In this document: one piece after another, positions 4,245-20,727 of the stretch
How the letters are laid out: each line of letters opens with the position of its first letter
Numbering within the stretch: position 1 is the first letter of the stretch
Source of the DNA: a virus
Virus record (IMG/VR): IMGVR_UViG_3300046512_000075
Coordinates: 1 to 26,225 of that record
Reading direction: 5' to 3' (one strand)
Length of the DNA: 26,225 bases
Translations under genes and position numbers: made by a program
The notes under the pieces: model-generated
Databases searched by the model: none
What the model saw: only the letters and a program-made list of their open reading frames with translations
What the model was told of the DNA's origin: nothing

Positions 4245-4486
4245 TGCGGACGCTCCGCAGTCGGCACAACGAGCTGCTTCTTCAGTTCGTGGCGCGTCTT
4301 ACCAATGCCTGCCAGGTACGGGTAGTCGGCAAGCACTTTTGGCCCGCGCTGGCCGTTCGGTACATTCCGGTAGCGATCGGAGTACCAAATATCAGCCATG
4401 GTGACTTCGTACTGGCTGGTCAACCACAACAGGTAGTGCTGCGCCTGCTGCTCGTCCAGCTCAAGTTTTATGGTGATTTTGCTCAT
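4241..4486 (-). CDS. Small early protein, unknown function
   Basis: The 81-residue form begins MSKITIKLELDEQQAQHYL, reads like one strand then a helix, and ends in a basic tail (GIGKTRHELKKQLVV). The middle is rich in tyrosine and tryptophan (MADIWYSDRYR). No family is recognised. Two starts are possible: ATG at 4486 with a weak GGTGG, or ATG at 4540 (99 residues), 17 bases after the previous stop and without a visible ribosome site. Codon use looks coding in both, so the choice is uncertain. The stop overlaps the GTG of the primase-helicase gene, suggesting coupled translation and a role in replication. That role is inference from position only. Confidence 0.6.
   Translation of the reverse strand: MSKITIKLELDEQQAQHYLLWLTSQYEVTMADIWYSDRYRNVPNGQRGPKVLADYPYLAGIGKTRHELKKQLVVPTAERPQ
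4244..4260 (-). promoter_or_regulatory. Hairpin over the start codon of the primase gene
   Basis: A perfect 7-bp inverted repeat with a 3-base loop (CTGCGGA, GCG, TCCGCAG on the minus strand). It contains the GGAG ribosome site in one arm and ends at the first base of the GTG start. Folding would hide the site until a ribosome finishing the upstream gene opens it, which fits the overlapping GTGA stop/start. Seen in sequence; the control role is inferred. Confidence 0.45.
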
Positions 4487-4557
4487 TTCGGCCACCAGTA
4501 AGTTGCAAATTTCCCCTACCCACGCGGTGCGGGCATCCATCAGGGATTGGTTTCGGG

Positions 4558-4932
4558 TTAGTGCGGGAGGTTGCGAGTCAGCAGCAGGCGTGTGGGAAGC
4601 AAGCGCGCTGAAACGGGGTGTCGCTGTTGGGTGCAGTTGTCGAGCAGCCAGATGACCGGTCGAAACGGGCCGCTATTTGGGTGAACGCCAAGCCAGGCAA
4701 CGCGCTTGCAGGTCATGCTTTCGAACTCGGCAACGGCCAGTTCAGCGAGGCGTTGCACCAGGTGCTGGGGGACTTCAAGCGACAGCGTCAGGTAGCGGGT
4801 GCAGTTCTCCAGCAACTGCGTGTCTCCGGCCAGATGCTGGCAACGATGGCGGTAGAGGTAGGCCACCGCCGCCTGCTGCATCGCGGCGCGGTAGTCACTG
4901 GCGGGGTTGGTAGTCAGGCTAATAGCGTTCAT
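4558..4932 (-). CDS. Early phage protein, unknown function
   Basis: This 124-residue protein is mostly helical (SDYRAAMQQAAVAYLYRHRCQH, then QLLENCTRYLTLSLEVP, then QRLAELAVAEFESM). No catalytic or binding motif stands out. The C-terminus is rich in arginine and leucine (SARLLPTRLLLTRNLPH). The ATG at 4932 overlaps the Ogr stop as ATGA, with GGAGG 10 bases upstream, so the start is well supported. It lies between the late activator and the replication genes in the early operon, with tight spacing. The type of protein is common in Pseudomonas temperate phages, to my recollection, but I cannot name a function. Confidence 0.6.
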   Translation of the reverse strand: MNAISLTTNPASDYRAAMQQAAVAYLYRHRCQHLAGDTQLLENCTRYLTLSLEVPQHLVQRLAELAVAEFESMTCKRVAWLGVHPNSGPFRPVIWLLDNCTQQRHPVSARLLPTRLLLTRNLPH

Positions 4933-5222
4933 GCGGATGTGGCCTCCATATCCAGTTGATCCAGCAGATCGGGTTGATCGTTGGCTGTTTTCATTGCCTG
5001 GCGACGAATGACCACATCTGCAACTGGCAGCTTTACCGCCGGGTTGGGCATGCCGCTGGGGCTCAGCTCGTGGGTCATTTGAAATTCAGCACGTCCCGCC
5101 CAGCCGCACGCCTCGTTGGTGCACTGCAGGTAGGTGATACGTAGGAAAATGTGTTGGCCTTCGCTGGTGCGGATGCGCATGCGGCCGTGGCAGTGGGGGC
5201 AGACGAGTTTGTACGTGCTCAC
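4929..5222 (-). CDS. ogr: Ogr/Delta-type zinc-finger activator of late genes
   Basis: The protein has 97 residues and the four-cysteine finger of the Ogr/Delta family: C8 and C11 (CPHC), then C34 and C39 (CTNEAC), with the basic RMRIRTS between. Ogr of P2 and Delta of P4 bind dyad sites upstream of the late promoters and recruit host RNA polymerase through the alpha subunit. The start is GTG at 5222, overlapping the upstream stop as GTGA. In P2 ogr lies after D. Here it sits in the middle of the early operon, so it should be made directly from the early promoter and time the late phase. Its likely targets in this window are the matching dyads before V and FI (20081-20103 and 15044-15066). Family call confident; target sites inferred. 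Confidence 0.88.
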   Translation of the reverse strand: MSTYKLVCPHCHGRMRIRTSEGQHIFLRITYLQCTNEACGWAGRAEFQMTHELSPSGMPNPAVKLPVADVVIRRQAMKTANDQPDLLDQLDMEATSA

Positions 5223-5692
5223 TGGACAGCTCCCTGGCTGTAGAGCTGGATTGTCGCGAACACCTCGGCGTAGCGGGCCGACATGTAGGCGATCAGGGCG
5301 GCGATGATCGCGTCGGCTTCACGCTTTTCGATGACCCCGTCGTCCAGGGCGGTAGACATGATCTGGTCGACTTTGCCCCGCTTGGCTGAGGCCTTTAGCG
5401 AGCGGCTGTACAACTCCACGTTGTCCAGGTTCTCCGGGATACTCAGCGGTACGAACATGCCGCCGTACATTGAAGCGATGTAATCAGCCAGGAAGTTGGT
5501 GCCTGCGACCTTCTCCAGGCGGCGAATGTGTTCGTCGGTCAGCGGGCGGCTGCCGGCATTTTCGTATGCTTGGTTGTCGAACTTCTTCAGCGGCATGCCG
5601 AGGTCTGCCGAGGCGTATTCCCGACCGCCTGGGTAGGCGCCGATGACGGCCATGACGACGCTCTTTCTGCTGTCTAGAACTGGGCGTTTCAT
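5219..5692 (-). CDS. YmfL/CII-like phage regulatory protein
   Basis: The protein has 157 residues from the ATG at 5692, with GGGAG about 10 bases upstream. It starts MKRPVLDSRKSVVMAVIGAYPGG. The first 70 residues look like a DNA-binding domain of the phage CII/YmfL type, with a recognition-like stretch around GMPLKKFDNQAYENAG and LTDEHIRRLEKVAG. The C-terminal half is helical. Proteins of this class, encoded right after the Cro/Cox-like gene in P2-like and lambdoid phages, are taken to be regulators of the lysis-lysogeny decision. A longer open frame to 5800 overlaps the previous gene and lacks a ribosome site. The stop overlaps the ogr start. The superfamily assignment is moderately sure. 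Confidence 0.7.
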   Translation of the reverse strand: MKRPVLDSRKSVVMAVIGAYPGGREYASADLGMPLKKFDNQAYENAGSRPLTDEHIRRLEKVAGTNFLADYIASMYGGMFVPLSIPENLDNVELYSRSLKASAKRGKVDQIMSTALDDGVIEKREADAIIAALIAYMSARYAEVFATIQLYSQGAVQ

Positions 5693-5732
5693 CTTCTGGT
5701 TTCTCCCTGGAGTCATCGCCCCTACAGTCGTT

Positions 5733-5993
5733 TCATACAGCCTGTGCTGAATTTTGCGCGGCACTTTCCGCGAGGATCCCAGGCAAGATTTCTTTGCCAA
5801 TCACCCGCGACAGGTCTCGCAGGATTTGGAACGTCAACCGGCCGCGTGGCAGTTTGGTGTGACCTGCCCAACGCTGAACCACTTGCGTCACTGTGCGCAC
5901 TTCATAGCCGTGGCTGAGAGCGAATTGGCGGAAGTTGCTGCCGCGCTCGATCAGACGTGCTTGGATCTGGCGCTTTTCCATGGCTTGGCTCAT
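5733..5993 (-). CDS. HTH protein of the BcepMu gp16 family (Cro/Cox-like)
   Basis: This 86-residue protein is the first gene of the early operon. It matches the phage-associated BcepMu gp16 family in layout: a helix ending ARLIERGSNFRQFALSHGY, an HTH-like turn into TVTQVVQRWAG, then a conserved end FQILRDLSRVIGKEILPGI. Its position directly behind the leftward promoter and facing the repressor is that of Cro or Cox, which shut off the repressor promoter and, in P2, also direct excision. That role is by position. The start at 5993 was preferred; a second ATG (5981) is possible. The 5' leader is about 40 bases from the predicted -10. Confidence 0.78.
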   Translation of the reverse strand: MSQAMEKRQIQARLIERGSNFRQFALSHGYEVRTVTQVVQRWAGHTKLPRGRLTFQILRDLSRVIGKEILPGILAESAAQNSAQAV

Positions 5994-6037
5994 GGTTCGA
6001 GTGTTCCTAGTTGGTTAAGATGTACCTGTTTGTTCGC

Positions 6038-6065
6038 AGTATACGCACCAAAATGAGTGCGTCAA
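6038..6065 (-). promoter_or_regulatory. Leftward early promoter
   Basis: On the minus strand TTGACG (6065-6060) and TATACT (6043-6038) are separated by 16 bases. This is a near-consensus sigma-70 promoter and the best one in the window. It points into the early operon, whose first ATG is at 5993. The dyad ACGCAC-N8-GTGCGT fills the space between the two boxes, so repressor binding would block it. Confidence 0.75.
6043..6062. promoter_or_regulatory. Candidate repressor operator
   Basis: A perfect dyad, ACGCAC (6043-6048), 8 bases, GTGCGT (6057-6062). It overlaps the first base of the -10 box and three bases of the -35 box of the early promoter and lies 20 bases before the chosen start of the repressor. 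It is a single full site; no second close copy was seen nearby. Confidence 0.6.
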
Positions 6066-6082
6066 TTGGAATTTATGAAAAA

Positions 6083-6490
6083 ATGAGTATAGCCGCTCGC
6101 CTGCGCAGCGTAATCGACGACAGAGGTATGTCTATAAAGGAGGCCTCAGAAGTAGTGGGGATCCCTTACAGGACGCTTCAGAACTACCTTCTGGGCGAGC
6201 GTGAACCCAATGCGAAGGCTATGGCAGCCATTCGCACTCATTTGGGTATAAGTCTGGATTGGCTGCTGACGGGTGAAGGCTCTATGTGTCTGGGTGTTTC
6301 GGCGGATTCGTCGGAAGCGCAAACAAAGAATCAGCAGGAGGAGGCCATTCTTGAGCTGTTCCGCTCGCTTGGAGAGGCCGGTAAGCGGGAGATACAGAGC
6401 GCTGCTGAAGAAAAGAAACGCTTAATGGATGTCGAGCAGCGCCTCAAGGATTTGACTGAAGCCCTTGCCGATACCAAACGGCCAGCATAG
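6083..6490 (+). CDS. Phage repressor, CI/C-type HTH protein
   Basis: This 135-residue protein should keep the prophage silent. Residues 3-66 form an HTH_3/XRE domain: IAARLRSVIDDRGMSIKEA, then the recognition region VVGIPYRTLQNYLLGEREP, then LGISLDWLLTGEG, a hallmark ending of such domains. The rest (about 80-130) is charged and likely a coiled coil for dimerisation. It lacks a LexA-type peptidase domain, so, as with P2 C, induction by RecA self-cleavage is not expected. ATG 6083 is the start that begins the domain cleanly; ATG 6053 (145 residues) lies inside the operator, and neither has a good ribosome site. It is divergent from the early operon and, 281 bases later, is followed by the rex-like cassette on the same strand. 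Confidence 0.85.
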   Translation: MSIAARLRSVIDDRGMSIKEASEVVGIPYRTLQNYLLGEREPNAKAMAAIRTHLGISLDWLLTGEGSMCLGVSADSSEAQTKNQQEEAILELFRSLGEAGKREIQSAAEEKKRLMDVEQRLKDLTEALADTKRPA

Positions 6491-6508
6491 TCTGTACCCA
6501 TTAAGAAC

Positions 6509-6538
6509 GGATCAGTTAGACAGGGAAGCCACTGATCC
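6509..6538 (+). terminator. Inverted repeat after the repressor, possible weak terminator
   Basis: GGATCAGT (6509-6516) and ACTGATCC (6531-6538) form a perfect 8-bp stem with a 14-base loop, 18 bases after the repressor stop. No T-run follows, so a factor-independent terminator is doubtful. It could slow or protect the repressor mRNA, or be an operator-like dyad. Confidence 0.35.
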
Positions 6539-6771
6539 ACTCGCTAGACCCTGTTCTTGGGATTGCGAGTACGCCAAATGGCTTGCCTAAACCTGCATAG
6601 GGACGTGACCCATGTACAAAGTTCTGCCGTTCATGGCCCTGTTATCTTTCGCAAATATAACTATCGTTATTAATAATATATGTCGAGATAAGGGCGCTAT
6701 TGCTAAGGTAATAAGCTAGTGTCTTTTGAAGGCTGATTAATTACTTTGTCATGGATTTTTAAGGTGGTTTA
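6539..6771 (+). other. A/T-rich region before the two-gene cassette
   Basis: These 233 bases between the repressor hairpin and the cassette change from G/C-rich to A/T-rich near 6650 (for example ATTAATAATATATG around 6668-6682). Composition shifts like this often mark the edge of acquired cargo. No clear -35/-10 pair was found, so the cassette may have its own weak promoter or be read from the repressor promoter. A 35-codon frame at 6612-6719 (MYKVLPFMALLSF...) could encode a tiny membrane peptide but has only a distant AGGGA and is not called as a gene. Confidence 0.4.
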
Positions 6772-7728
6772 ATGGCGGTCAAGCAGAAGTCTCTAAATCG
6801 TACGTTGGCACTCAAGCCAATAATTTTTGCGAAAGAAATCGATAAAAAACTATCTGAACTGTTGATTGAGGCTGATAAGGCTTGTGATACGGTCGGTAAG
6901 CGAATGATGCATGATTACGTAATCGGTCCAGATGGCCCGATTCCGGATTACAGTTATTTTTATAATAATTTCGATATCTATGAAAATGGCGCGGTCTTTT
7001 TTGAGGTTTGGTCATACATTCCAGGAAGAATGCCAGCCGGGTTTACTCCCGACCTTACAGCCAAAAATGCAATGTACGACGTTGCTCAGCTTGTAGATGG
7101 GAATGGTAATGCAAAAGAATTAATTCATATTTCTCACGTGTTAATATATAAAAATGCTGCCATAATTGAAGCTACAAAGGGCACTGGTGGCTCTTATTTG
7201 ATTGAGAAATATCTAAATAAGTTGATCCGGGAGCGATGTGTAAAGCGGCCACCTCATGTTGCGTTTACTACTGCAATATCGTCTGACTTGTTTGGGGAGA
7301 TTCAGCAAGGAGGTGGTGCGGTATCTATATCTTTAGGGTTAACCCATGCAAAGCCGGGAAAAGATAATAAAGTAGTTGGCCTGTTATCTGACGCGCACTC
7401 TGTGTTTAGTCGCACTGATCTTGTGACGCTCAGTTGGAGTGCAGGTAGTAATTCGACTTTGAGTGCGGATGAGGTCGTAAGCGAGGCTCGTACAGCCAAA
7501 GACGACGAGCTTGATAAAATTTTTATTAAACTGAAGCATGGCAGTATCAAAGGTCTGTCAAAATATAAAATTACAAACCCCATTGTCGTTAGGGATGCAG
7601 GTGGTCGGAATCCTGACCATAAAGAAGTGAAAGAGACTATGATTGATTACCTGGGGCGCCTGTTGCAACCAGATGCTAAGGGTAAACGCGTGTTAGACGA
7701 TGAGGGTAACTTGATAAATAATGTCTAG
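6772..7728 (+). CDS. Accessory protein A of a rex-like two-gene cassette, unknown function
   Basis: This 318-residue soluble protein has no recognised family. It has no signal or membrane segment and no Walker, HNH or other nuclease motif I can point to. The N-terminal third is mixed alpha/beta; residues 118-152 read HISHVLIYKNAAIIEA, a glycine turn (KGTGG) and a helix SYLIEKYLNKLI; 195-260 has strands then an acidic-basic helix (DDELDKIFIKLKHG). Order and style recall lambda RexA, and size and pairing with a membrane protein also recall Kiwa KwaB. This is architecture, not shown homology. The ribosome site AAGGTGG lies 4 bases before the ATG. Codons are far more A/T-rich than in the flanking phage genes, a sign of transfer. 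It overlaps gene B by 8 bases, so the two are translated together. Confidence 0.7.
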   Translation: MAVKQKSLNRTLALKPIIFAKEIDKKLSELLIEADKACDTVGKRMMHDYVIGPDGPIPDYSYFYNNFDIYENGAVFFEVWSYIPGRMPAGFTPDLTAKNAMYDVAQLVDGNGNAKELIHISHVLIYKNAAIIEATKGTGGSYLIEKYLNKLIRERCVKRPPHVAFTTAISSDLFGEIQQGGGAVSISLGLTHAKPGKDNKVVGLLSDAHSVFSRTDLVTLSWSAGSNSTLSADEVVSEARTAKDDELDKIFIKLKHGSIKGLSKYKITNPIVVRDAGGRNPDHKEVKETMIDYLGRLLQPDAKGKRVLDDEGNLINNV

Positions 7729-8323
7729 GAAATGGCTTCCTGAAGAAATAGTGAACCTTGGGCTGGTAATTCGACAGTTTGGTATTGTCTCGAAAGCCGC
7801 TACAAATCACGTTTGCTCGCTATTCCTCAATTTTGTTTTTTTGATGGCTGGTGGCATTGTTGGATATATGCTGAGCGTCTCTGCTCAGGATAAAATCCTA
7901 GATTCTCTTTTAAGCTTTTGTGGGATAATTATTGGCTTTGTAATTACCGCTATGCTGTTTTCAGGTCGCAATCAATCGGCGGACAAGCTGGGCCTTGAGC
8001 AGGCTAAGGTGTATGCACTCAAGACGAGGTATATTCTAGTGTCTCAGACGCAGACTCTTATCGCGTTTTTATTTTGTGTAGGCTTCAGTTTGTTTGCAAT
8101 TATGTGTAAAAATTCCAATCTGAGTTCTGTTGATTCGCAGTTGGTGTTTGCGCTTGCAATGGGGTATTTTTCTCTTGGAGTTTATCGAACTATATTTTTA
8201 CCTTTTCAAATTTACGATGTTCACTCCTTTGCTCTTGATTCATTGATTCTGGAAAAAGAGGAACAAGCAAATTTGAAGGCGAAAAACGTTATGGATGGAT
8301 TTAAATCAATAAAAAGAGATTGA
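7721..8323 (+). CDS. Accessory protein B, four-helix membrane protein of the rex-like cassette
   Basis: The 200-residue product has four likely transmembrane helices, at about 31-52, 63-82, 109-129 and 139-160. Between helices 2 and 3 is a polar loop (SGRNQSADKLGLEQAKVYALKTRY), and the C-terminal tail is charged (EKEEQANLKAKN, then KSIKRD). An amphipathic N-terminus of 28 residues precedes helix 1. Such a protein would sit in the inner membrane with both ends in the cytoplasm. No family is recognised. Lambda RexB and Kiwa KwaA are also small four-helix proteins paired with a soluble partner, so a channel or membrane effector triggered by protein A is a reasonable guess. The ATG overlaps the end of gene A (ATGTCTAG) and has no strong site of its own. 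It ends 5 bases before the convergent stop of gene D. Confidence 0.7.
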   Translation: MSRKWLPEEIVNLGLVIRQFGIVSKAATNHVCSLFLNFVFLMAGGIVGYMLSVSAQDKILDSLLSFCGIIIGFVITAMLFSGRNQSADKLGLEQAKVYALKTRYILVSQTQTLIAFLFCVGFSLFAIMCKNSNLSSVDSQLVFALAMGYFSLGVYRTIFLPFQIYDVHSFALDSLILEKEEQANLKAKNVMDGFKSIKRD

Positions 8324-8325
8324 TT
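8304..8325. terminator. A/T-rich inverted repeat at the cassette/D junction
   Basis: AATCAAT (8304-8310) and ATTGATT (8319-8325) pair around an AAAAAGAG loop, overlapping the stop of gene B and 3 bases from the end of D. The stem is weak, and the plus-strand tail is only CTTTC. It may help end transcripts from either side. Confidence 0.3.
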
Positions 8326-8328
8326 CTT

Positions 8329-9600
8329 TCAATGGCTTGAGTGGTCCTGCATCTTGCGCCACTCTCGATCCACCGCCCGCTTGGCCGTCTTCTCACTGGC
8401 ATACAACCACCGTAGCCGCCTCGGCTTCGCCTGATCACCCGCCGTAATCGTTTTTTCCTTCCCGGTTTTCGCGTCGCGGTAATACGCGATGATCCCCGTG
8501 TAATCCCCCGTGTTCTCCTCCGCCAAATCCTCAACATTGTCCTCCGGCAACTTGCTCTCCAGCTCCAGGCTGACCGTGTAACCCCCGTCCGCACTCAGGC
8601 TGTGCTGCACATTCCCGCCATACCAAATGATCTCGTCGATTTCCGCCTTCACACCCTGGAGCGTGTACGTCAGTTCGGGAATCAGATCCGGCCGGCCCAT
8701 CGCCAGGGTGTAGCTGAGCGTGGCACTGCCGCGCTGCAACCGCCGAAACTCGGCACGGGCGGCCCGCAGGGCTGACTGCTGGTCGCTGTAGGTATGGCGC
8801 AGGTCCTTGAGATTGTCGCCGCCGCCGGCAATGGCTTCCTGTTTCTTGGCGCTGTTCACGTCGTAGTAGTAAGCGCGCACGCCGTCGTAGCTGTCGCGGT
8901 CGGCTTGCAGGTAGCGGTGCTGGTCGCCGTCGGCGCGGGTGAGGGTGATGTGGGGCAGGTCCATGCCACTGGCGGTCTTGCCGCCACCCGCCGGTAGGCA
9001 CAGCAGGCAGCCGGCCTTGACGCTGGCCACCGCGTCGAATTCTTCGCCCAGGCGGCTGATGAGGTTGGCGTCGGATTCGTTGGCCTGGTCGAGTTGCAGG
9101 ATGGGCAAACCGTCCAGCGCGCCGGCGATGGTGGCGGTGAGGCCGTTGCCAATGGCGATATCGCCCAGGACGTCGCCGAGGGTGGTGTTGCTCCAACTGC
9201 GCTCGCGTTTGGTTTTGAGGCCCTTGCGCAGGTCTGCCGATCGAGCGCGGATGCTGAGCACGTCCGGCGCGCCGCTGTGCTCGGTTTCGTCGACGGTGTA
9301 GGTGCCTTTGTCGACCAGGCCGGTGTCGCTCCAGCCCAACCACAACCGCACCACTGCACCCTTCGGTGGAATCGTCAGCAAGCCGTCATGGTCGCTGAGG
9401 GTGATGCTGAGTTGGTCGGCCTCGACGCCGCGGTTGTCGGTCAGCTCCAGGCTCATCAGCCGCGGGCTGATTATTTGGGCAATGTCCAGGCCGTCGACGG
9501 CGAGCCGGAAGGCCGGCACCGGATAGGCTGCGTCCCGGACGTAGCGCTCTGCGGTGTTGCGCAGGTAACCGGTGACCTTGGCAATCATGGGCTCGATCAC
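8329..9600 (-). CDS. D: Tail protein D (baseplate hub)
   Basis: The 423-residue protein is the GpD family of P2. It was first named a late-gene control protein and is structurally a hub like T4 gp27. It begins MIEPMIAKVTGYLRN and has the typical early segment PAFRLAVDGLDIAQIISPRLMSLELTD, then DHDGLLTIPPKGAVVRLWLGW, and a later HTYSDQQSALRAARAEFRRLQRG. P2 D is somewhat shorter (about 390), so the C-terminal RDAKTGKEKTITAGDQAKPRRLRWLY segment is extra or lengthened; phiCTX-type phages often show it. The start is GTG at 9600, overlapping the U stop as GTGA. It is the last gene of the FI-to-D late unit and abuts the convergent accessory cassette. Confidence 0.9.
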   Translation of the reverse strand: MIEPMIAKVTGYLRNTAERYVRDAAYPVPAFRLAVDGLDIAQIISPRLMSLELTDNRGVEADQLSITLSDHDGLLTIPPKGAVVRLWLGWSDTGLVDKGTYTVDETEHSGAPDVLSIRARSADLRKGLKTKRERSWSNTTLGDVLGDIAIGNGLTATIAGALDGLPILQLDQANESDANLISRLGEEFDAVASVKAGCLLCLPAGGGKTASGMDLPHITLTRADGDQHRYLQADRDSYDGVRAYYYDVNSAKKQEAIAGGGDNLKDLRHTYSDQQSALRAARAEFRRLQRGSATLSYTLAMGRPDLIPELTYTLQGVKAEIDEIIWYGGNVQHSLSADGGYTVSLELESKLPEDNVEDLAEENTGDYTGIIAYYRDAKTGKEKTITAGDQAKPRRLRWLYASEKTAKRAVDREWRKMQDHSSH

Positions 9601-10042: not shown

Positions 10043-12718
10043 TTATTCCAGGTCGGAGAGTTTGCTGCGCTGACGCGCTTTCTTTTCGTTTTCGATGCGG
10101 GCCAGAATCGCGCGCAGGCTCTTTTCCAGGCTTTGCATGTCGGTGCCAGGCCCTGCCGTGATGGAGATTTGGTAGGTGTCGTGGCTGTCGTAAACGGTGG
10201 CTGCGGACGATCCGCTGATCGGGGGCGCGTTATCCACAGCAAACGCCGGCATTGCGGTAGCGCCGAGCGCCAGAGTGCCGGCGGCGGTCATCCGCTTGCT
10301 CATACTGGTCATGGCGTCCAGCGGGCCTTTCTGCCCTCCCTCAAGGCCCTGAGTAAGCCCGGCCATGGTGAACCCGCCCAGCTCCGCAAACACCCGCGAC
10401 GGGCTGTGGATGCCGAGTTTTTCCTTGAACCAACCAATGCTGGCGTCTCCGATCGAGCCGATGGCGTTTTTGACGGCGCCGATGCCGGCCGTCAGCCCGT
10501 TGATCAGGCCGTTGACGATCATGCCGCCGAACTCGGTGAAGCGGCCGGGTAGTTCGATGCCCAGGTAACTCATCACGCCGGCGAACGCTTGGTAAATAAG
10601 GCCTAGGGGGCTGAAATTGACCAGGGTGGTGATGATGCCGCCGATCCCACCATCGAAACCCGCTTTGATCTCGGTCCATGCGTTGGCGAAGTAGTTCTTC
10701 ACCGCATCCCAGTTTTTGTATATCAGGTAGGCCCCGCCGGCGAGCGCGGCGACAACGGCGGCGATGATCAGAACGATTGGGTTCGCTGCCAGCCCCCACA
10801 GAGCCACGCCTACGGTGCGCAGGGCGGTCAGCAGGGCGCCGCCCATTGTCGTGGCGACCATACGAACGCCTTGGGCAAACATCGGGAACGCATTGCGGGC
10901 GAGTCCGGTCAGAGTGGGCATCAACCGGCCAAGCATTTTGGTGATGCCGCCACCCTGGAGACCGAACAGGGTCATGCCGTAACGCAGCACCGCGAACGGC
11001 CCCAGCATGCTTGCCATGGTCAGTGCCAAACCGCCGAAAACGAATGCCATCGCGGCAATTGCAGCCACGACCTTGACCAGGCCCCCGGCAAGTTTTGGAT
11101 TCTCCCTGGCCCAAGTGCCGACGCTATTGGCGATCTCGCCCAGCACATTGATCAGGTCTTTCAGGTCAGGCGCTACCGCTGCACCGAACTCAGCCATGGC
11201 GTTGGTGAAACTGCCTTCTGCGGCCTCCATGACGTTGGTGAGGGTGCCTAGCTGTTCATTCACACGGGTGCGTAGGTCGGCTTGAGTTTGCAGCTTCTGC
11301 TGGACTTCCCGATATCCCGCCAGACCCTTGTTCATCATGGCGTCCAGAGTCGACATCGTCTCCGCATCATCCCCGAACAACGTCTGTTTTATTTCTGTTC
11401 GATCGGTATCGTTCAGGCCCTTCAGCTTCTCAATTTGCGCATACAGATTTTCCAGTCCAGCAAAGTTGCCCTTGTCATCCGTGAACTTGAACGACATCCC
11501 CGGTTTAGATTTCGCGAGCGCTTTGTTCGCTTTGTCGACTTTGTCTTGATTCAGCCCCGCTTGGAAAATTTTGCGGAAGGCGTTGCCTGCGGAACCACCG
11601 TCCATAGCTGCCTGGTCCATCATGATTAGCAGCGGCGCCAGTTCCTTTGCAGCATCGATCCCTGACTTCTTGATTACGTCCATCACTGGGGCAATCTTGC
11701 TGAAGCCCTGTAGCATGTTTGTTGGGTCAACACCGGCATAGAAACCACGCTGGATGGTATCCATCAGCCCCATCATGTCTTTTTCGCTGGTACGCGTGGC
11801 GTCCTGCATCTTGGCCGCGAATTCAGCCGCCTCTGTGGCTCCCATATTCAACTGGACGCCGAGGTATGCTGCGGCTTCACCGGTACCACCGAGGATGCTC
11901 TGAGCGCTGATGCCCTGGCGCCGGAGCATCGTCATCATGTTCTGGAAGTCAGCCGTGGTGCCTGGCAAGCGGTCGCCCAGCTTGGTGGCCAGATCCGTGA
12001 TCTTCTGGAAGTCCTCGGAGACCTTGCCGGTGTTGTCCATCATCGACACTTTGAGCTGTGTGGCGGAATCCTCATTGGGCGCAAAGGCCTTCACTGCTGC
12101 AGCTACGGGGCGGCTGGCTGCGTAGCCAACACCCAAGCCGGCGGCGCCGTTCACGGCAAGGTTGCCGGCGGCGCGCTGGGACTTCTCCATTTGGCTACGA
12201 GCCAACGCTGCGCGCTTGTGCTGGGCGCTCAGCTCGGCCATGCGCTTGCCTTGCGTGCTGATGCTGGCGTTGGTGGCGTTGATTTGCTCGCGCAGCTGGC
12301 GCTCATGGGTGCCGAGATTTTTAGTGCTGATGCCGGCGTCGTAGAGCTTCGATCGCAGCCCTTGCAACTGAACGCTCTCTTGCTGGTGCTGCTGCTTGAG
12401 TCGGGTGGCCTCGCGCACTGCTGCCTGGAAGCTGCGGGTCATTGCCCTGGTCGGCGCGTCGGTGGCGGCGAGTTCCTGGCTGAGGGATTTGACTCGATCA
12501 CGTGCAGCAGTGAGCGATGCACCGGTTTGTTCGGCTGCTGCTCGCTGAGCCCGCCAGGCGCTGACGTCTTTTTGTTGGGAGGTGAGTTCTTTCAGGCGGT
12601 CGCGAGCAGCCTTGAGGGCACGCGCTGTCTCGATGCCCCCTTCGCTGATGTGCTTCAGCGGGCGGGTTGCCTTGTCGATGGTACTGAGCAGCACCTGAAG
12701 TCTCAGATCATTTGCCAT
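10043..12718 (-). CDS. T: Tail tape-measure protein T
   Basis: At 891 residues this is the longest structural gene here, and tape-measure length sets tail length; P2 T is about 815, suggesting a slightly longer tail. The N-terminus (about 25-180) is a coiled coil rich in A, R, E and Q (LKAARDRLKELTSQQKD and similar). The tape-measure core domain follows at about 215-430 (EDSATQLKVSMMD, ISAQSILGGTGEAAAYLG). Hydrophobic stretches lie between about 545 and 685 (VVAAIAAMAFVFGGLALTM; NPIVLIIAAVVAALAGGAYLIY), as in phages whose tape measure inserts into the host membrane. The C-terminal FAELGGFTMAGLTQGLEGG repeat type is typical. The ATG at 12718 overlaps the end of E' by 11 bases. Confidence 0.95.
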   Translation of the reverse strand: MANDLRLQVLLSTIDKATRPLKHISEGGIETARALKAARDRLKELTSQQKDVSAWRAQRAAAEQTGASLTAARDRVKSLSQELAATDAPTRAMTRSFQAAVREATRLKQQHQQESVQLQGLRSKLYDAGISTKNLGTHERQLREQINATNASISTQGKRMAELSAQHKRAALARSQMEKSQRAAGNLAVNGAAGLGVGYAASRPVAAAVKAFAPNEDSATQLKVSMMDNTGKVSEDFQKITDLATKLGDRLPGTTADFQNMMTMLRRQGISAQSILGGTGEAAAYLGVQLNMGATEAAEFAAKMQDATRTSEKDMMGLMDTIQRGFYAGVDPTNMLQGFSKIAPVMDVIKKSGIDAAKELAPLLIMMDQAAMDGGSAGNAFRKIFQAGLNQDKVDKANKALAKSKPGMSFKFTDDKGNFAGLENLYAQIEKLKGLNDTDRTEIKQTLFGDDAETMSTLDAMMNKGLAGYREVQQKLQTQADLRTRVNEQLGTLTNVMEAAEGSFTNAMAEFGAAVAPDLKDLINVLGEIANSVGTWARENPKLAGGLVKVVAAIAAMAFVFGGLALTMASMLGPFAVLRYGMTLFGLQGGGITKMLGRLMPTLTGLARNAFPMFAQGVRMVATTMGGALLTALRTVGVALWGLAANPIVLIIAAVVAALAGGAYLIYKNWDAVKNYFANAWTEIKAGFDGGIGGIITTLVNFSPLGLIYQAFAGVMSYLGIELPGRFTEFGGMIVNGLINGLTAGIGAVKNAIGSIGDASIGWFKEKLGIHSPSRVFAELGGFTMAGLTQGLEGGQKGPLDAMTSMSKRMTAAGTLALGATAMPAFAVDNAPPISGSSAATVYDSHDTYQISITAGPGTDMQSLEKSLRAILARIENEKKARQRSKLSDLE

Positions 12719-20166: not shown

Positions 20167-20727
20167 ATGTTTTTAGAAACGCTTAAAAGCGTACCTTCAG
20201 AGGCATGGATAGGGCTGGCAGGTGTTGTTTTTGGTTCGTTATTGACAACTTTTGGCGTCTGGTTGACTAATCGCTCTAATTTGAGTCAATTGCAAAAGCA
20301 ACTTCAGCATGAGGATAAAAGGATTAATGGGAGAGTATCAAAAGAGCGTTTCGAGGAATTGTATATTCTTGTGTCTAGTTGGCTGAACGGTTTTTTTGTA
20401 GATTATCTTCATTTGATAAGTGTCATGAGGGATCAGATTACCTATAAAGAATATACTGATATTGTAATTAAAGCAGGTAGTGTCACGGATTTCAGTCGTA
20501 TCGAAATGATAGTTGGAATATATGGTGGTGATATTACTGAGGCTTTTAATCGTGTGTTGGCATTGCGAGCGCCACGCAATGCAATCATTACTGAACACAA
20601 GTTTACTTACGAACGTGGCGGGTCGGGAACACAGTTCATCGAGCCTTTTACAGCTGCCCAGACGGCTTTAGAGGATGCCTGTGAAGAGTTGAAGCTTGCT
20701 ATTGCTCGTGCTGCTCGCGTTAGTTAA
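20167..20727 (+). CDS. Accessory membrane-anchored protein inserted between S and V
   Basis: This 186-residue protein is not recognised. One transmembrane segment lies at about 12-35 (AWIGLAGVVFGSLLTTFGVWL), followed by NRSNLSQLQKQLQHEDKRI, a probable short coiled coil, then a helical cytoplasmic domain. It runs against the late genes, is clearly more A/T-rich than they are, and lies exactly at the boundary of two late operons. These are marks of a moron. AGGA lies 7 bases before the ATG. Its TAA overlaps the TAA of S on the other strand (shared TTAA at 20724-20727). Similar single-helix anchor proteins are common in prophage cargo; a superinfection-exclusion or defence role is a guess from context. 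Confidence 0.7.
   Translation: MFLETLKSVPSEAWIGLAGVVFGSLLTTFGVWLTNRSNLSQLQKQLQHEDKRINGRVSKERFEELYILVSSWLNGFFVDYLHLISVMRDQITYKEYTDIVIKAGSVTDFSRIEMIVGIYGGDITEAFNRVLALRAPRNAIITEHKFTYERGGSGTQFIEPFTAAQTALEDACEELKLAIARAARVS

What the first reader, a model, noticed from the sequence alone, without database searches (positions are those of the whole stretch)
6772..8323. Rex-like two-gene cassette behind the repressor, of unknown family
Seen: a 318-residue soluble protein and a 200-residue four-helix membrane protein, overlapping by 8 bases, on the same strand as the repressor, in DNA much richer in A/T than its neighbours. Known: lambda cI is followed by rexA (soluble) and rexB (four-helix membrane), which abort infection by other phages; Kiwa pairs a four-helix KwaA with a roughly 315-residue KwaB. 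Inferred: this is a prophage exclusion or defence pair in which protein A senses an infecting phage or its DNA and B harms the membrane. I see no nuclease or ATPase motif, and sequence likeness to RexA or KwaB is at best faint, so it may be a new family.
Basis: partly seen in the sequence, partly recalled or inferred. Interest (0 to 1): 0.78.

Follow-up and report, generated by a model that had tools for sequence, protein, structure and literature searches.

The report
Rex-type phage-exclusion pair behind repressor
Beside its repressor, this Pseudomonas-type prophage carries two linked genes that look like a distant relative of phage lambda's RexA/RexB, so it probably makes infected cells shut down before a rival phage can multiply.

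Summary
A (6772-7728, 318 aa) and B (7721-8323, 200 aa, four TM helices) overlap by 8 bases on the repressor's strand, in the window's most AT-rich stretch. Both are under strong purifying selection. Neither has a significant match in Pfam, NCBIfam, PHROGs or PADLOC. A predicted model of A (pLDDT 81) has lambda RexA as its best solved relative (Foldseek E 1.1e-5; Z 10.9), then RdgC and Iml3. B aligns weakly with lambda RexB (suggestive only). An A homologue lies directly upstream of B in 17 of 18 other records; the 18th starts inside B. In its P2-like phage family the pair fills a sharply bounded exchange pocket. Kiwa is not supported. Best reading: a Rex-type abortive-infection module, A as DNA-binding sensor and B as membrane effector. 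That function is inferred from lambda Rex and from RexABpp of P. putida (PMC12894663). Whether this is RexABpp's own sequence family could not be tested.

The parts
6772..7728 (+). Protein A, 318 aa: RexA-fold soluble protein, proposed DNA-binding sensor
   Evidence: ORF; AF2 model pLDDT 81.4; lambda RexA best PDB match; dN/dS 0.015
7721..8323 (+). Protein B, 200 aa: four-TM membrane protein, proposed effector; conserved GFVITAMLFSGR (end of TM2) and LPFQIYDVH (after TM4)
   Evidence: ORF; alignment A6; four hydropathy peaks and segment conservation; helical model; weak RexB alignment
6011..6490 (+). Phage repressor (XRE/CI-type HTH) directly upstream of A
   Evidence: Pfam HTH_3 E 1.9e-9, Phage_CI_repr 1.9e-5; PHROG transcriptional repressor 1.3e-15
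6491..6771 (+). AT-rich intergenic leader of the pair; one weak sigma-70-like site at 6648-6677 and an SD-like AAGGTGG at 6761-6767
   Evidence: promoter-like sites in that scan are hardly more frequent than in shuffles (6 found, 4.3 expected)
6510..8358 (.). Variable pocket: DNA similarity to sister phages stops just after the repressor (6509-6527 in 3 of 4) and resumes at the end of gpD (8358-8361 in 4 of 4)
   Evidence: blastn against L004, L035, L057, L058; in L004 its own A-B pair also aligns inside the pocket (6946-8305); gene content differs between records
8329..9600 (-). Tail gene gpD (late control D), right border of the pocket
   Evidence: Pfam Phage_GPD 9.9e-10; PHROG tail protein 6.6e-155
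5219..5993 (-). Divergent early control genes (BcepMu gp16-like HTH 5733-5993; YmfL/CII-like 5219-5800), left side of the immunity region

Best explanation
The pair is a Rex-type exclusion (abortive-infection) module carried as a moron by a P2-like Pseudomonas-type prophage. A (RexA-fold; inferred dimeric, sequence-unspecific DNA binder like its fold relatives) sits idle in the lysogen; when an infecting phage makes replication or recombination intermediates or a trigger protein, A changes state and switches on B. B (four-TM, probably oligomeric) then opens or damages the inner membrane and growth stops before the infecting phage is finished. Shown here: the genes, their selection, pairing and place, and A's predicted fold. 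Inferred from lambda RexAB and RexABpp: DNA binding, activation of B, membrane damage, exclusion.
For: A's model: best PDB match lambda RexA 8twq (Foldseek E 1.1e-5, prob 1.00; VIA Z 10.9 over 234 residues; only 2 of 997 chains reach Z 8 and the entry shown at that level is RexA), then RdgC (Z 7.6) and Iml3 (6.7); the RexA crystal paper names RdgC, IML3 and CHL4 as RexA's relatives (PMC11077077 passages). Gene order repressor-soluble-membrane on one strand as in lambda and in CarolAnn, whose rex-like genes also overlap. Pairing: A directly upstream of B in 17 of 18 other records; A and B distances correlate at 0.956 over 91 pairs of 14 loci, Mantel p 0.0001 (this shows co-inheritance, not binding). 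B-RexB profile alignment: score 22.2 over 103 columns, TM2 to the final FQ[IL]Y; reached by 0 of 38 and 0 of 5 unrelated multi-TM proteins and 1 of 100 block shuffles. The borders of an exchange pocket recur in 4 of 5 sister records compared. Very low dN/dS. PMC12894663 (read: abstract, parts 1-4 of 9, discussion) reports for P. putida a RexA-like DNA-binding protein plus a four-TM protein downstream of a repressor, both needed for defence, with membrane damage.
Against: No sequence match of A to Pfam RexA or of B to Pfam RexB, and A-RexA profile comparison fails (E 0.48 and 0.63); but lambda RexA against CarolAnn gp44, an accepted Rex protein, fails the same test. The A-RexA superposition is loose as one body (rmsd 13.5-14.7; TM 0.31-0.38); the RdgC and Iml3 matches are under Z 8, where the tool warns of common arrangements. 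No entry named RexA is among the 50 rows of the viral structure library. B-RexB E is only 0.012; the decoys were single sequences against a 7-sequence RexB profile, and of seven single RexBs four score 10.7-14.9, within the decoy range. Net charge of A homologues is about zero (-8 to +3 in 14), no pointer to DNA binding, though lambda RexA is +3 and CarolAnn gp44 -7. No sequence relative in phage or plasmid records or PDB. 7 of 19 records carry the pair beside an integrase, not a repressor. In RexABpp itself no A-B contact, no depolarisation and no complementation in trans were seen.
Confidence: 0.72

Rival explanations
1. Reversed roles, as proposed for mycobacteriophage Butters gp30/gp31: A is the antiviral agent that acts on infecting phage, and B holds A at the membrane until infection frees it.
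For: Same anatomy (cytosolic RexA-like plus membrane partner) per the discussion of PMC12894663; A is the more constrained partner (dN/dS 0.015 vs 0.042).
Against: For lambda, Sbash, CarolAnn and RexABpp the membrane protein is described as the effector. B's conservation peaks after TM4 (0.83) and in TM2 (0.67), as fits a gated effector.
Confidence: 0.13
2. A lysogeny-control module: A binds DNA unspecifically and tunes the repressor switch; B is auxiliary, and exclusion is minor or absent.
For: lambda RexA biases the bistable switch independently of RexB (PMC11077077 abstract); the pair lies directly behind the repressor here.
Against: The same pair sits between mutS and an integrase, not behind a repressor, in L007, L009, L011, L013, L023; between window and L001 the repressor's N-terminal part has no match while A is 97% identical; RexABpp did not change repressor promoter activity (PMC12894663).
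Confidence: 0.08
3. A Kiwa (KwaA/KwaB) variant.
Against: No match of A to Pfam KwaB at E up to 10 (Pfam's PF16162 is named KwaB); hhalign of A against two KwaB and of B against their 193- and 207-aa neighbours (taken for KwaA) gives E 0.31-0.44, and those loci run membrane gene first; RexA ranks first in the fold search.
Confidence: 0.02
4. A moron pair unrelated to phage exclusion (for example a host membrane or stress function).
For: No functional assay; in two genome carriers no phage gene was identified beside the pair (L024, L025; few neighbours were scanned).
Against: 14 of the 18 other records are IMG/VR viral contigs; fold and order match Rex; pocket content turns over.
Confidence: 0.05

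Closest known systems
RexAB of phage lambda (RexA PF15969, PDB 8TWQ; RexB PF15968)
   Same: A has the RexA fold by prediction; repressor-A-B order on one strand; four-TM partner; B aligns weakly with RexB
   Different: No sequence-profile match to RexA or RexB; A longer (318 vs 279 aa), B longer (200 vs 144 aa); genes overlap here, while rexA and rexB are 15 bases apart
RexABpp (PP_5643/PP_5644) of Pseudomonas putida prophage P1, PMC12894663
   Same: Pseudomonas host; downstream of a Cro/CI-type repressor; RexA-like soluble protein (37.5 kDa with His tag) plus four-TM protein; RexApp over-production harms only RexBpp-bearing cells there
   Different: Two further genes lie between repressor and rexA in P. 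putida; sequence relation untested because I found those sequences in no collection here. Seven RexBpp residues named in the paper match at most 3 of 7 positions (ungapped, shifts up to 15) in any of 14 B proteins, a crude check that speaks only against close homology to those 14
CarolAnn gp44/gp43 (Gordonia) and Sbash gp30/gp31 (Mycobacterium)
   Same: Soluble RexA-like gene and four-TM gene as partners; CarolAnn's overlap and follow the repressor
   Different: No sequence similarity detected between A and gp44 (E 0.27); B and gp43 align over 26 columns only (E 0.094). Sbash proteins were not compared
RdgC, and Iml3/Chl4 and related kinetochore proteins
   Same: Match A's model at Z 5-7.6, and are named as RexA's fold relatives
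   Different: Chromosomal recombination or kinetochore proteins without a membrane partner (recalled); Z under 8 is not proof of relation
Kiwa (KwaA/KwaB)
   Same: Sizes and a four-TM plus soluble composition
   Different: No profile similarity, opposite gene order

Membership tests
lambda RexAB (sequence family) | A matches Pfam RexA (PF15969) | tested here: not met
   0 families for A at E<=10; in 10 A homologues at E<=1 two weak families, neither RexA; lambda RexA itself scores 1e-97
lambda RexAB (sequence family) | B matches Pfam RexB (PF15968) | tested here: not met
   RexB not among the 4 weak matches of B at E<=10 nor among the 25 of 28 families shown for 14 B homologues; lambda RexB scores 8.5e-92
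Rex-type exclusion systems (structural/functional kind) | Soluble partner with RexA fold | tested here: met
   Best PDB match lambda RexA, Foldseek E 1.1e-5, Z 10.9 over 234 residues, next entry Z 7.6; a prediction, not a solved structure; rmsd 13.5 as one body
Rex-type exclusion systems (structural/functional kind) | Four-TM membrane partner encoded directly downstream | tested here: met
Rex-type exclusion systems (structural/functional kind) | B homologous to RexB | tested here: inconclusive
   hhalign E 0.012, score 22.2, 103 columns; 0 of 38 and 0 of 5 decoys, 1 of 100 block shuffles reach it; 4 of 7 single RexBs at decoy level
Rex-type exclusion systems (structural/functional kind) | Located behind the prophage repressor | tested here: met
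   window and 7 of 18 other records; 7 of 18 lie beside an integrase; in 4 of 18 neither was found
Rex-type exclusion systems (structural/functional kind) | A binds DNA; activated B permeabilises the membrane; both needed for exclusion | not testable with these tools
   bench assays needed
RexABpp (P. putida) | Sequence homology to PP_5643/PP_5644 | tested here: inconclusive
   Sequences not held; ungapped check of 7 named RexBpp residues gives at most 3 of 7 in any of 14 B proteins
Kiwa | Soluble partner matches KwaB (PF16162) | tested here: not met
Kiwa | Membrane gene (kwaA) precedes kwaB | tested here: not met
   A (soluble) precedes B; the two KwaB loci L082 and L083 have a 193- or 207-aa hydrophobic ORF upstream of kwaB, taken for kwaA without a profile test

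The most novel reading that the evidence does not exclude
A separate Rex lineage, found in Pseudomonas-type prophages, another gammaproteobacterium and a Nitrospirae MAG, in which B is gated by its own conserved elements (GFxxTxMxFxG at the end of TM2, the central loop, LPFQIYxxH after TM4; motifs from 14 aligned B proteins) and is not merely a distant copy of lambda RexB, RexABpp or the actinophage pairs; its trigger may differ too.
Probability: 0.35. Interest if true: 0.6.

Novelty: new member of a known kind. Interest (0 to 1): 0.5.

Why it matters
PMC12894663 counts only five described RexAB-like systems (PMC11077077 lists further actinophage homologues), and how RexA senses infection is still open. 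This pair adds a family that the profile libraries do not see, found in 19 records, with conserved motifs in B, which allows comparative and mutational tests of sensing and gating that the small lambda family (1 of 369 class genomes by Pfam RexA) hardly does. It also marks a small exchange pocket between repressor and gpD in Pseudomonas P2-like phages as a place to look for other exclusion genes.

Tried and rejected
Kiwa: rejected. CBASS-type 4TM effector: only a weak PADLOC hit in 2 of 10 B members (E 0.095). PADLOC PDC-M53A: E 0.015 in 1 of 10 A members, not seen in five divergent A proteins. DUF6338: 4 of 10 A members, best E 0.023, not pursued. Assorted Pfam membrane families matched 1-3 of 14 B members (best ATPase_gene1 2.8e-4), taken as hydrophobic noise. 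Fold search of B: no PDB match at E<=0.001 (best 0.066); VIA listed helical bundles up to Z 11.1, the membrane proteins NINJ1 (10.8) and Orai (9.6) tied with soluble bundles, below the tool's caution line for such folds; no inference drawn. A-RexA by profile-profile: nothing. Absence of KwaB from the fold list was not counted; a KwaB and its neighbour found no PDB sequence.

Prevalence: evenly drawn samples gave 1 of 298 and 2 of 398 (overlapping the first) Pseudomonas, 2 of 369 in the class and 1 of 295 in the phylum of G004; every positive was a carrier already known, so these samples added no new carrier. KwaB: 2 of 239. A second scan with four divergent A proteins returned only one of its own members. 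Several collections may omit records near the window, as the tools say.

RexABpp: its sequence was in no collection I used; supplements could not be read; the 7-residue check was inconclusive. That this family is undescribed rests and paper searches only. The split into two B subgroups is by eye on the alignment; no tree was built.

Full report
Observation. The window is a 26,225-base IMG/VR virus record. Its late genes are P2-like (gpD 8329-9600 -, tape measure 10043-12718 -), and parts of 5000-9600 (26-38% of it) are 76-80% identical in DNA to Pseudomonas phages such as Dobby and OQ658368. Against L001, A has 12.5 non-synonymous against 123.5 synonymous differences and B 16 against 69, so both are real, constrained genes.

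What the libraries say. A matches nothing in Pfam, NCBIfam or PADLOC at E up to 10 and only chance-level PHROGs (E 0.38 and 0.4). B gives only weak hits (best E 0.011, a PHROG of unknown function). tblastn in 50,697 phage and 72,556 plasmid records finds neither, nor two relatives tried.

Relatives. Scans of viral contigs and of genome contigs gave B relatives in 14 viral contigs and 4 genomes: Pseudomonas faucium (L023), P. izuensis (L024), a gammaproteobacterial MAG (L025) and a Nitrospirae MAG (L026), at 94% down to 26% identity. Three contig pairs are near-duplicates (L004/L005, L008/L009, L011/L012). An A homologue is directly upstream of B in 17 of these 18; L012 starts inside B, L008's A is cut by the contig start, and L035's A is reduced to its C-terminal part. 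In 14 aligned pairs the genes overlap by 4-59 bases in 12 and are 1 and 12 bases apart in two. Distances of A and B correlate at 0.956: the pair is inherited as a unit.

Fold of A. An AlphaFold2 model from the 14-sequence alignment (mean pLDDT 81.4, pTM 0.75) has lambda RexA as its two best Foldseek matches (E 1.1e-5 and 8.8e-5) and as its best VIA match (Z 10.9, 234 residues). Next come RdgC (Z 7.6, 7.5), a kinetochore chain (7.1), Iml3 (6.7) and further inner-kinetochore chains, among them CENP-N: the RexA crystal paper names RdgC, IML3 and CHL4 as RexA's relatives (PMC11077077, passages read). These lesser matches are under Z 8 and count little on their own. The rigid-body rmsd to RexA is large (13.5). 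The paper says that crystallised RexA is in a closed state and that AlphaFold predicts an open one, which would explain a large rmsd with good per-domain similarity; I did not superpose the domains separately. Among predicted viral proteins the best matches are unnamed phage proteins (E 5.9e-14 down) and then recombination-associated, RdgC-type phage proteins (E 9.6e-4, 1.8e-3); no entry named RexA is among the 50 rows.

B. Four hydropathy peaks, as in lambda RexB and CarolAnn gp43. Conservation is highest just after TM4 (LPFQIYDVHSFALDSL, 0.83) and in TM2 (0.67); the TM2-TM3 loop (0.59) is about level with TM3 (0.58). [quoted passage not shown] Profile alignment with seven RexBs runs from TM2 to FQ[IL]Y (score 22.2, E 0.012). 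Controls: 0 of 38 unrelated multi-TM proteins reach it (maximum 20.0 over 13 columns) and 0 of 5 more, 1 of 100 block-shuffled RexB alignments does (24.0), the reversed alignment gives 12.6, and of seven single RexB sequences three score 21.9-22.6 over 95-99 columns or, in one further case, 24.1 over 25 columns: four of seven exceed every decoy and three of seven (10.7, 12.3, 14.9) do not. The decoys were single sequences, the RexB side a profile. I read this as a hint of homology, not a demonstration. (Elsewhere in this report 'four of seven at decoy level' should read three of seven; the odds do not depend on it.)

A against RexA by sequence fails, but lambda RexA against CarolAnn gp44 fails equally, so the test has no power at this depth.

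Place. Five sister records were compared by blastn. L001 aligns through the whole pair. Similarity to L004, L035 and L057 (OQ658368) stops at 6509-6527, just behind the repressor; in L058 (Dobby) the last match before the gap ends at 5707. It resumes at 8358-8361 in all four; L004 aligns once more inside, over its own pair. L004/L005 hold an A-B pair 67% (A) and 72% (B) identical to the window's, plus other ORFs; L035 holds a BRCT-domain ORF, a truncated A and a B of the other subgroup; L057 a 464-aa ORF and a 291-aa ORF that looks like a D12-class adenine methylase (my reading of its sequence, no profile run); Dobby a LuxR-type regulator and others. So this is an exchange pocket. Antiviral hotspots between cI and integrase are known in P2-related phages of Vibrionaceae (PMC9122126 passages). 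Elsewhere the pair lies behind an S24 or HTH protein taken for the repressor (L006, L026, L036) or between mutS and the integrase at a prophage end (L007, L009, L011, L013, L023). In all, the window and 7 of 18 other records have it behind a repressor, 7 of 18 beside an integrase (L008 and L012 are cut before mutS), and in 4 of 18 (L010, L014, L024, L025) neither was found with the few neighbours and queries tried.

Mechanism. Shown: two co-inherited genes under strong selection, a RexA-like predicted fold for A, four TM helices for B, an exchange pocket. From the literature: RexApp binds DNA unspecifically, both P. putida genes are needed for protection, and over-producing RexApp damages membranes only with RexBpp present (PMC12894663; read: abstract, text parts 1-4 of 9, discussion). 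That paper found no RexA-RexB contact by two-hybrid and no depolarisation, and could not complement in trans, so the link from A to B is unproved even there. Inferred for the window: A senses infection on DNA and switches on B, which stops growth. I put 0.72 on this, 0.13 on reversed roles as in Butters, 0.08 on a switch-tuning role, 0.05 on a non-exclusion role and 0.02 on Kiwa.

Membership. It fails the sequence-profile tests for Pfam RexA, RexB and KwaB, so I do not file it in those sequence families. It meets the fold, order and topology features of Rex-type systems, a kind that already unites pairs without detectable sequence similarity in my tests (lambda and CarolAnn). Whether it is homologous to RexABpp at the sequence level is open. 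Interest 0.5: a solid new Rex-type family, with function untested.

Noticed in passing
window 20167-20727 (+): A second AT-rich island (GC 0.408) with a 186-aa ORF that begins with a likely TM helix, on the strand opposite to the surrounding late genes; only weak family matches (best E 0.017). Probably another moron.
   Followed up: partly
window 6026-6334 vs L001 6728-7045: The repressor's N-terminal part and the sequence before it have no blastn match between window and L001, while the repressor's C-terminal part, the A-B pair and the flanks are 79-85% identical: immunity specificity seems swapped on its own.
   Followed up: partly
L035 7134-8534: Same pocket in a sister prophage contig: a BRCT-like ORF (Pfam E 0.0012, just under the curated cut-off) followed by a truncated A and a B of the other subgroup.
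   Followed up: partly
L057 (OQ658368.1) 4445-6716: Same pocket in a P. aeruginosa phage record: a 464-aa ORF without Pfam match and, on the other strand, an unannotated 291-aa ORF resembling a D12-class adenine methylase; possibly another defence cassette.
   Followed up: no
L023 6995-9820, likewise L007, L009, L011, L013: A branch of the pair sits between chromosomal mutS and a tyrosine integrase, i.e. at the end of prophages inserted next to mutS.
   Followed up: partly
fold search of A against BFVD: Four unnamed phage proteins of 277-322 aa match A's model strongly (E 5.9e-14 to 1.7e-8); they may be further RexA-fold sensors.
   Followed up: no
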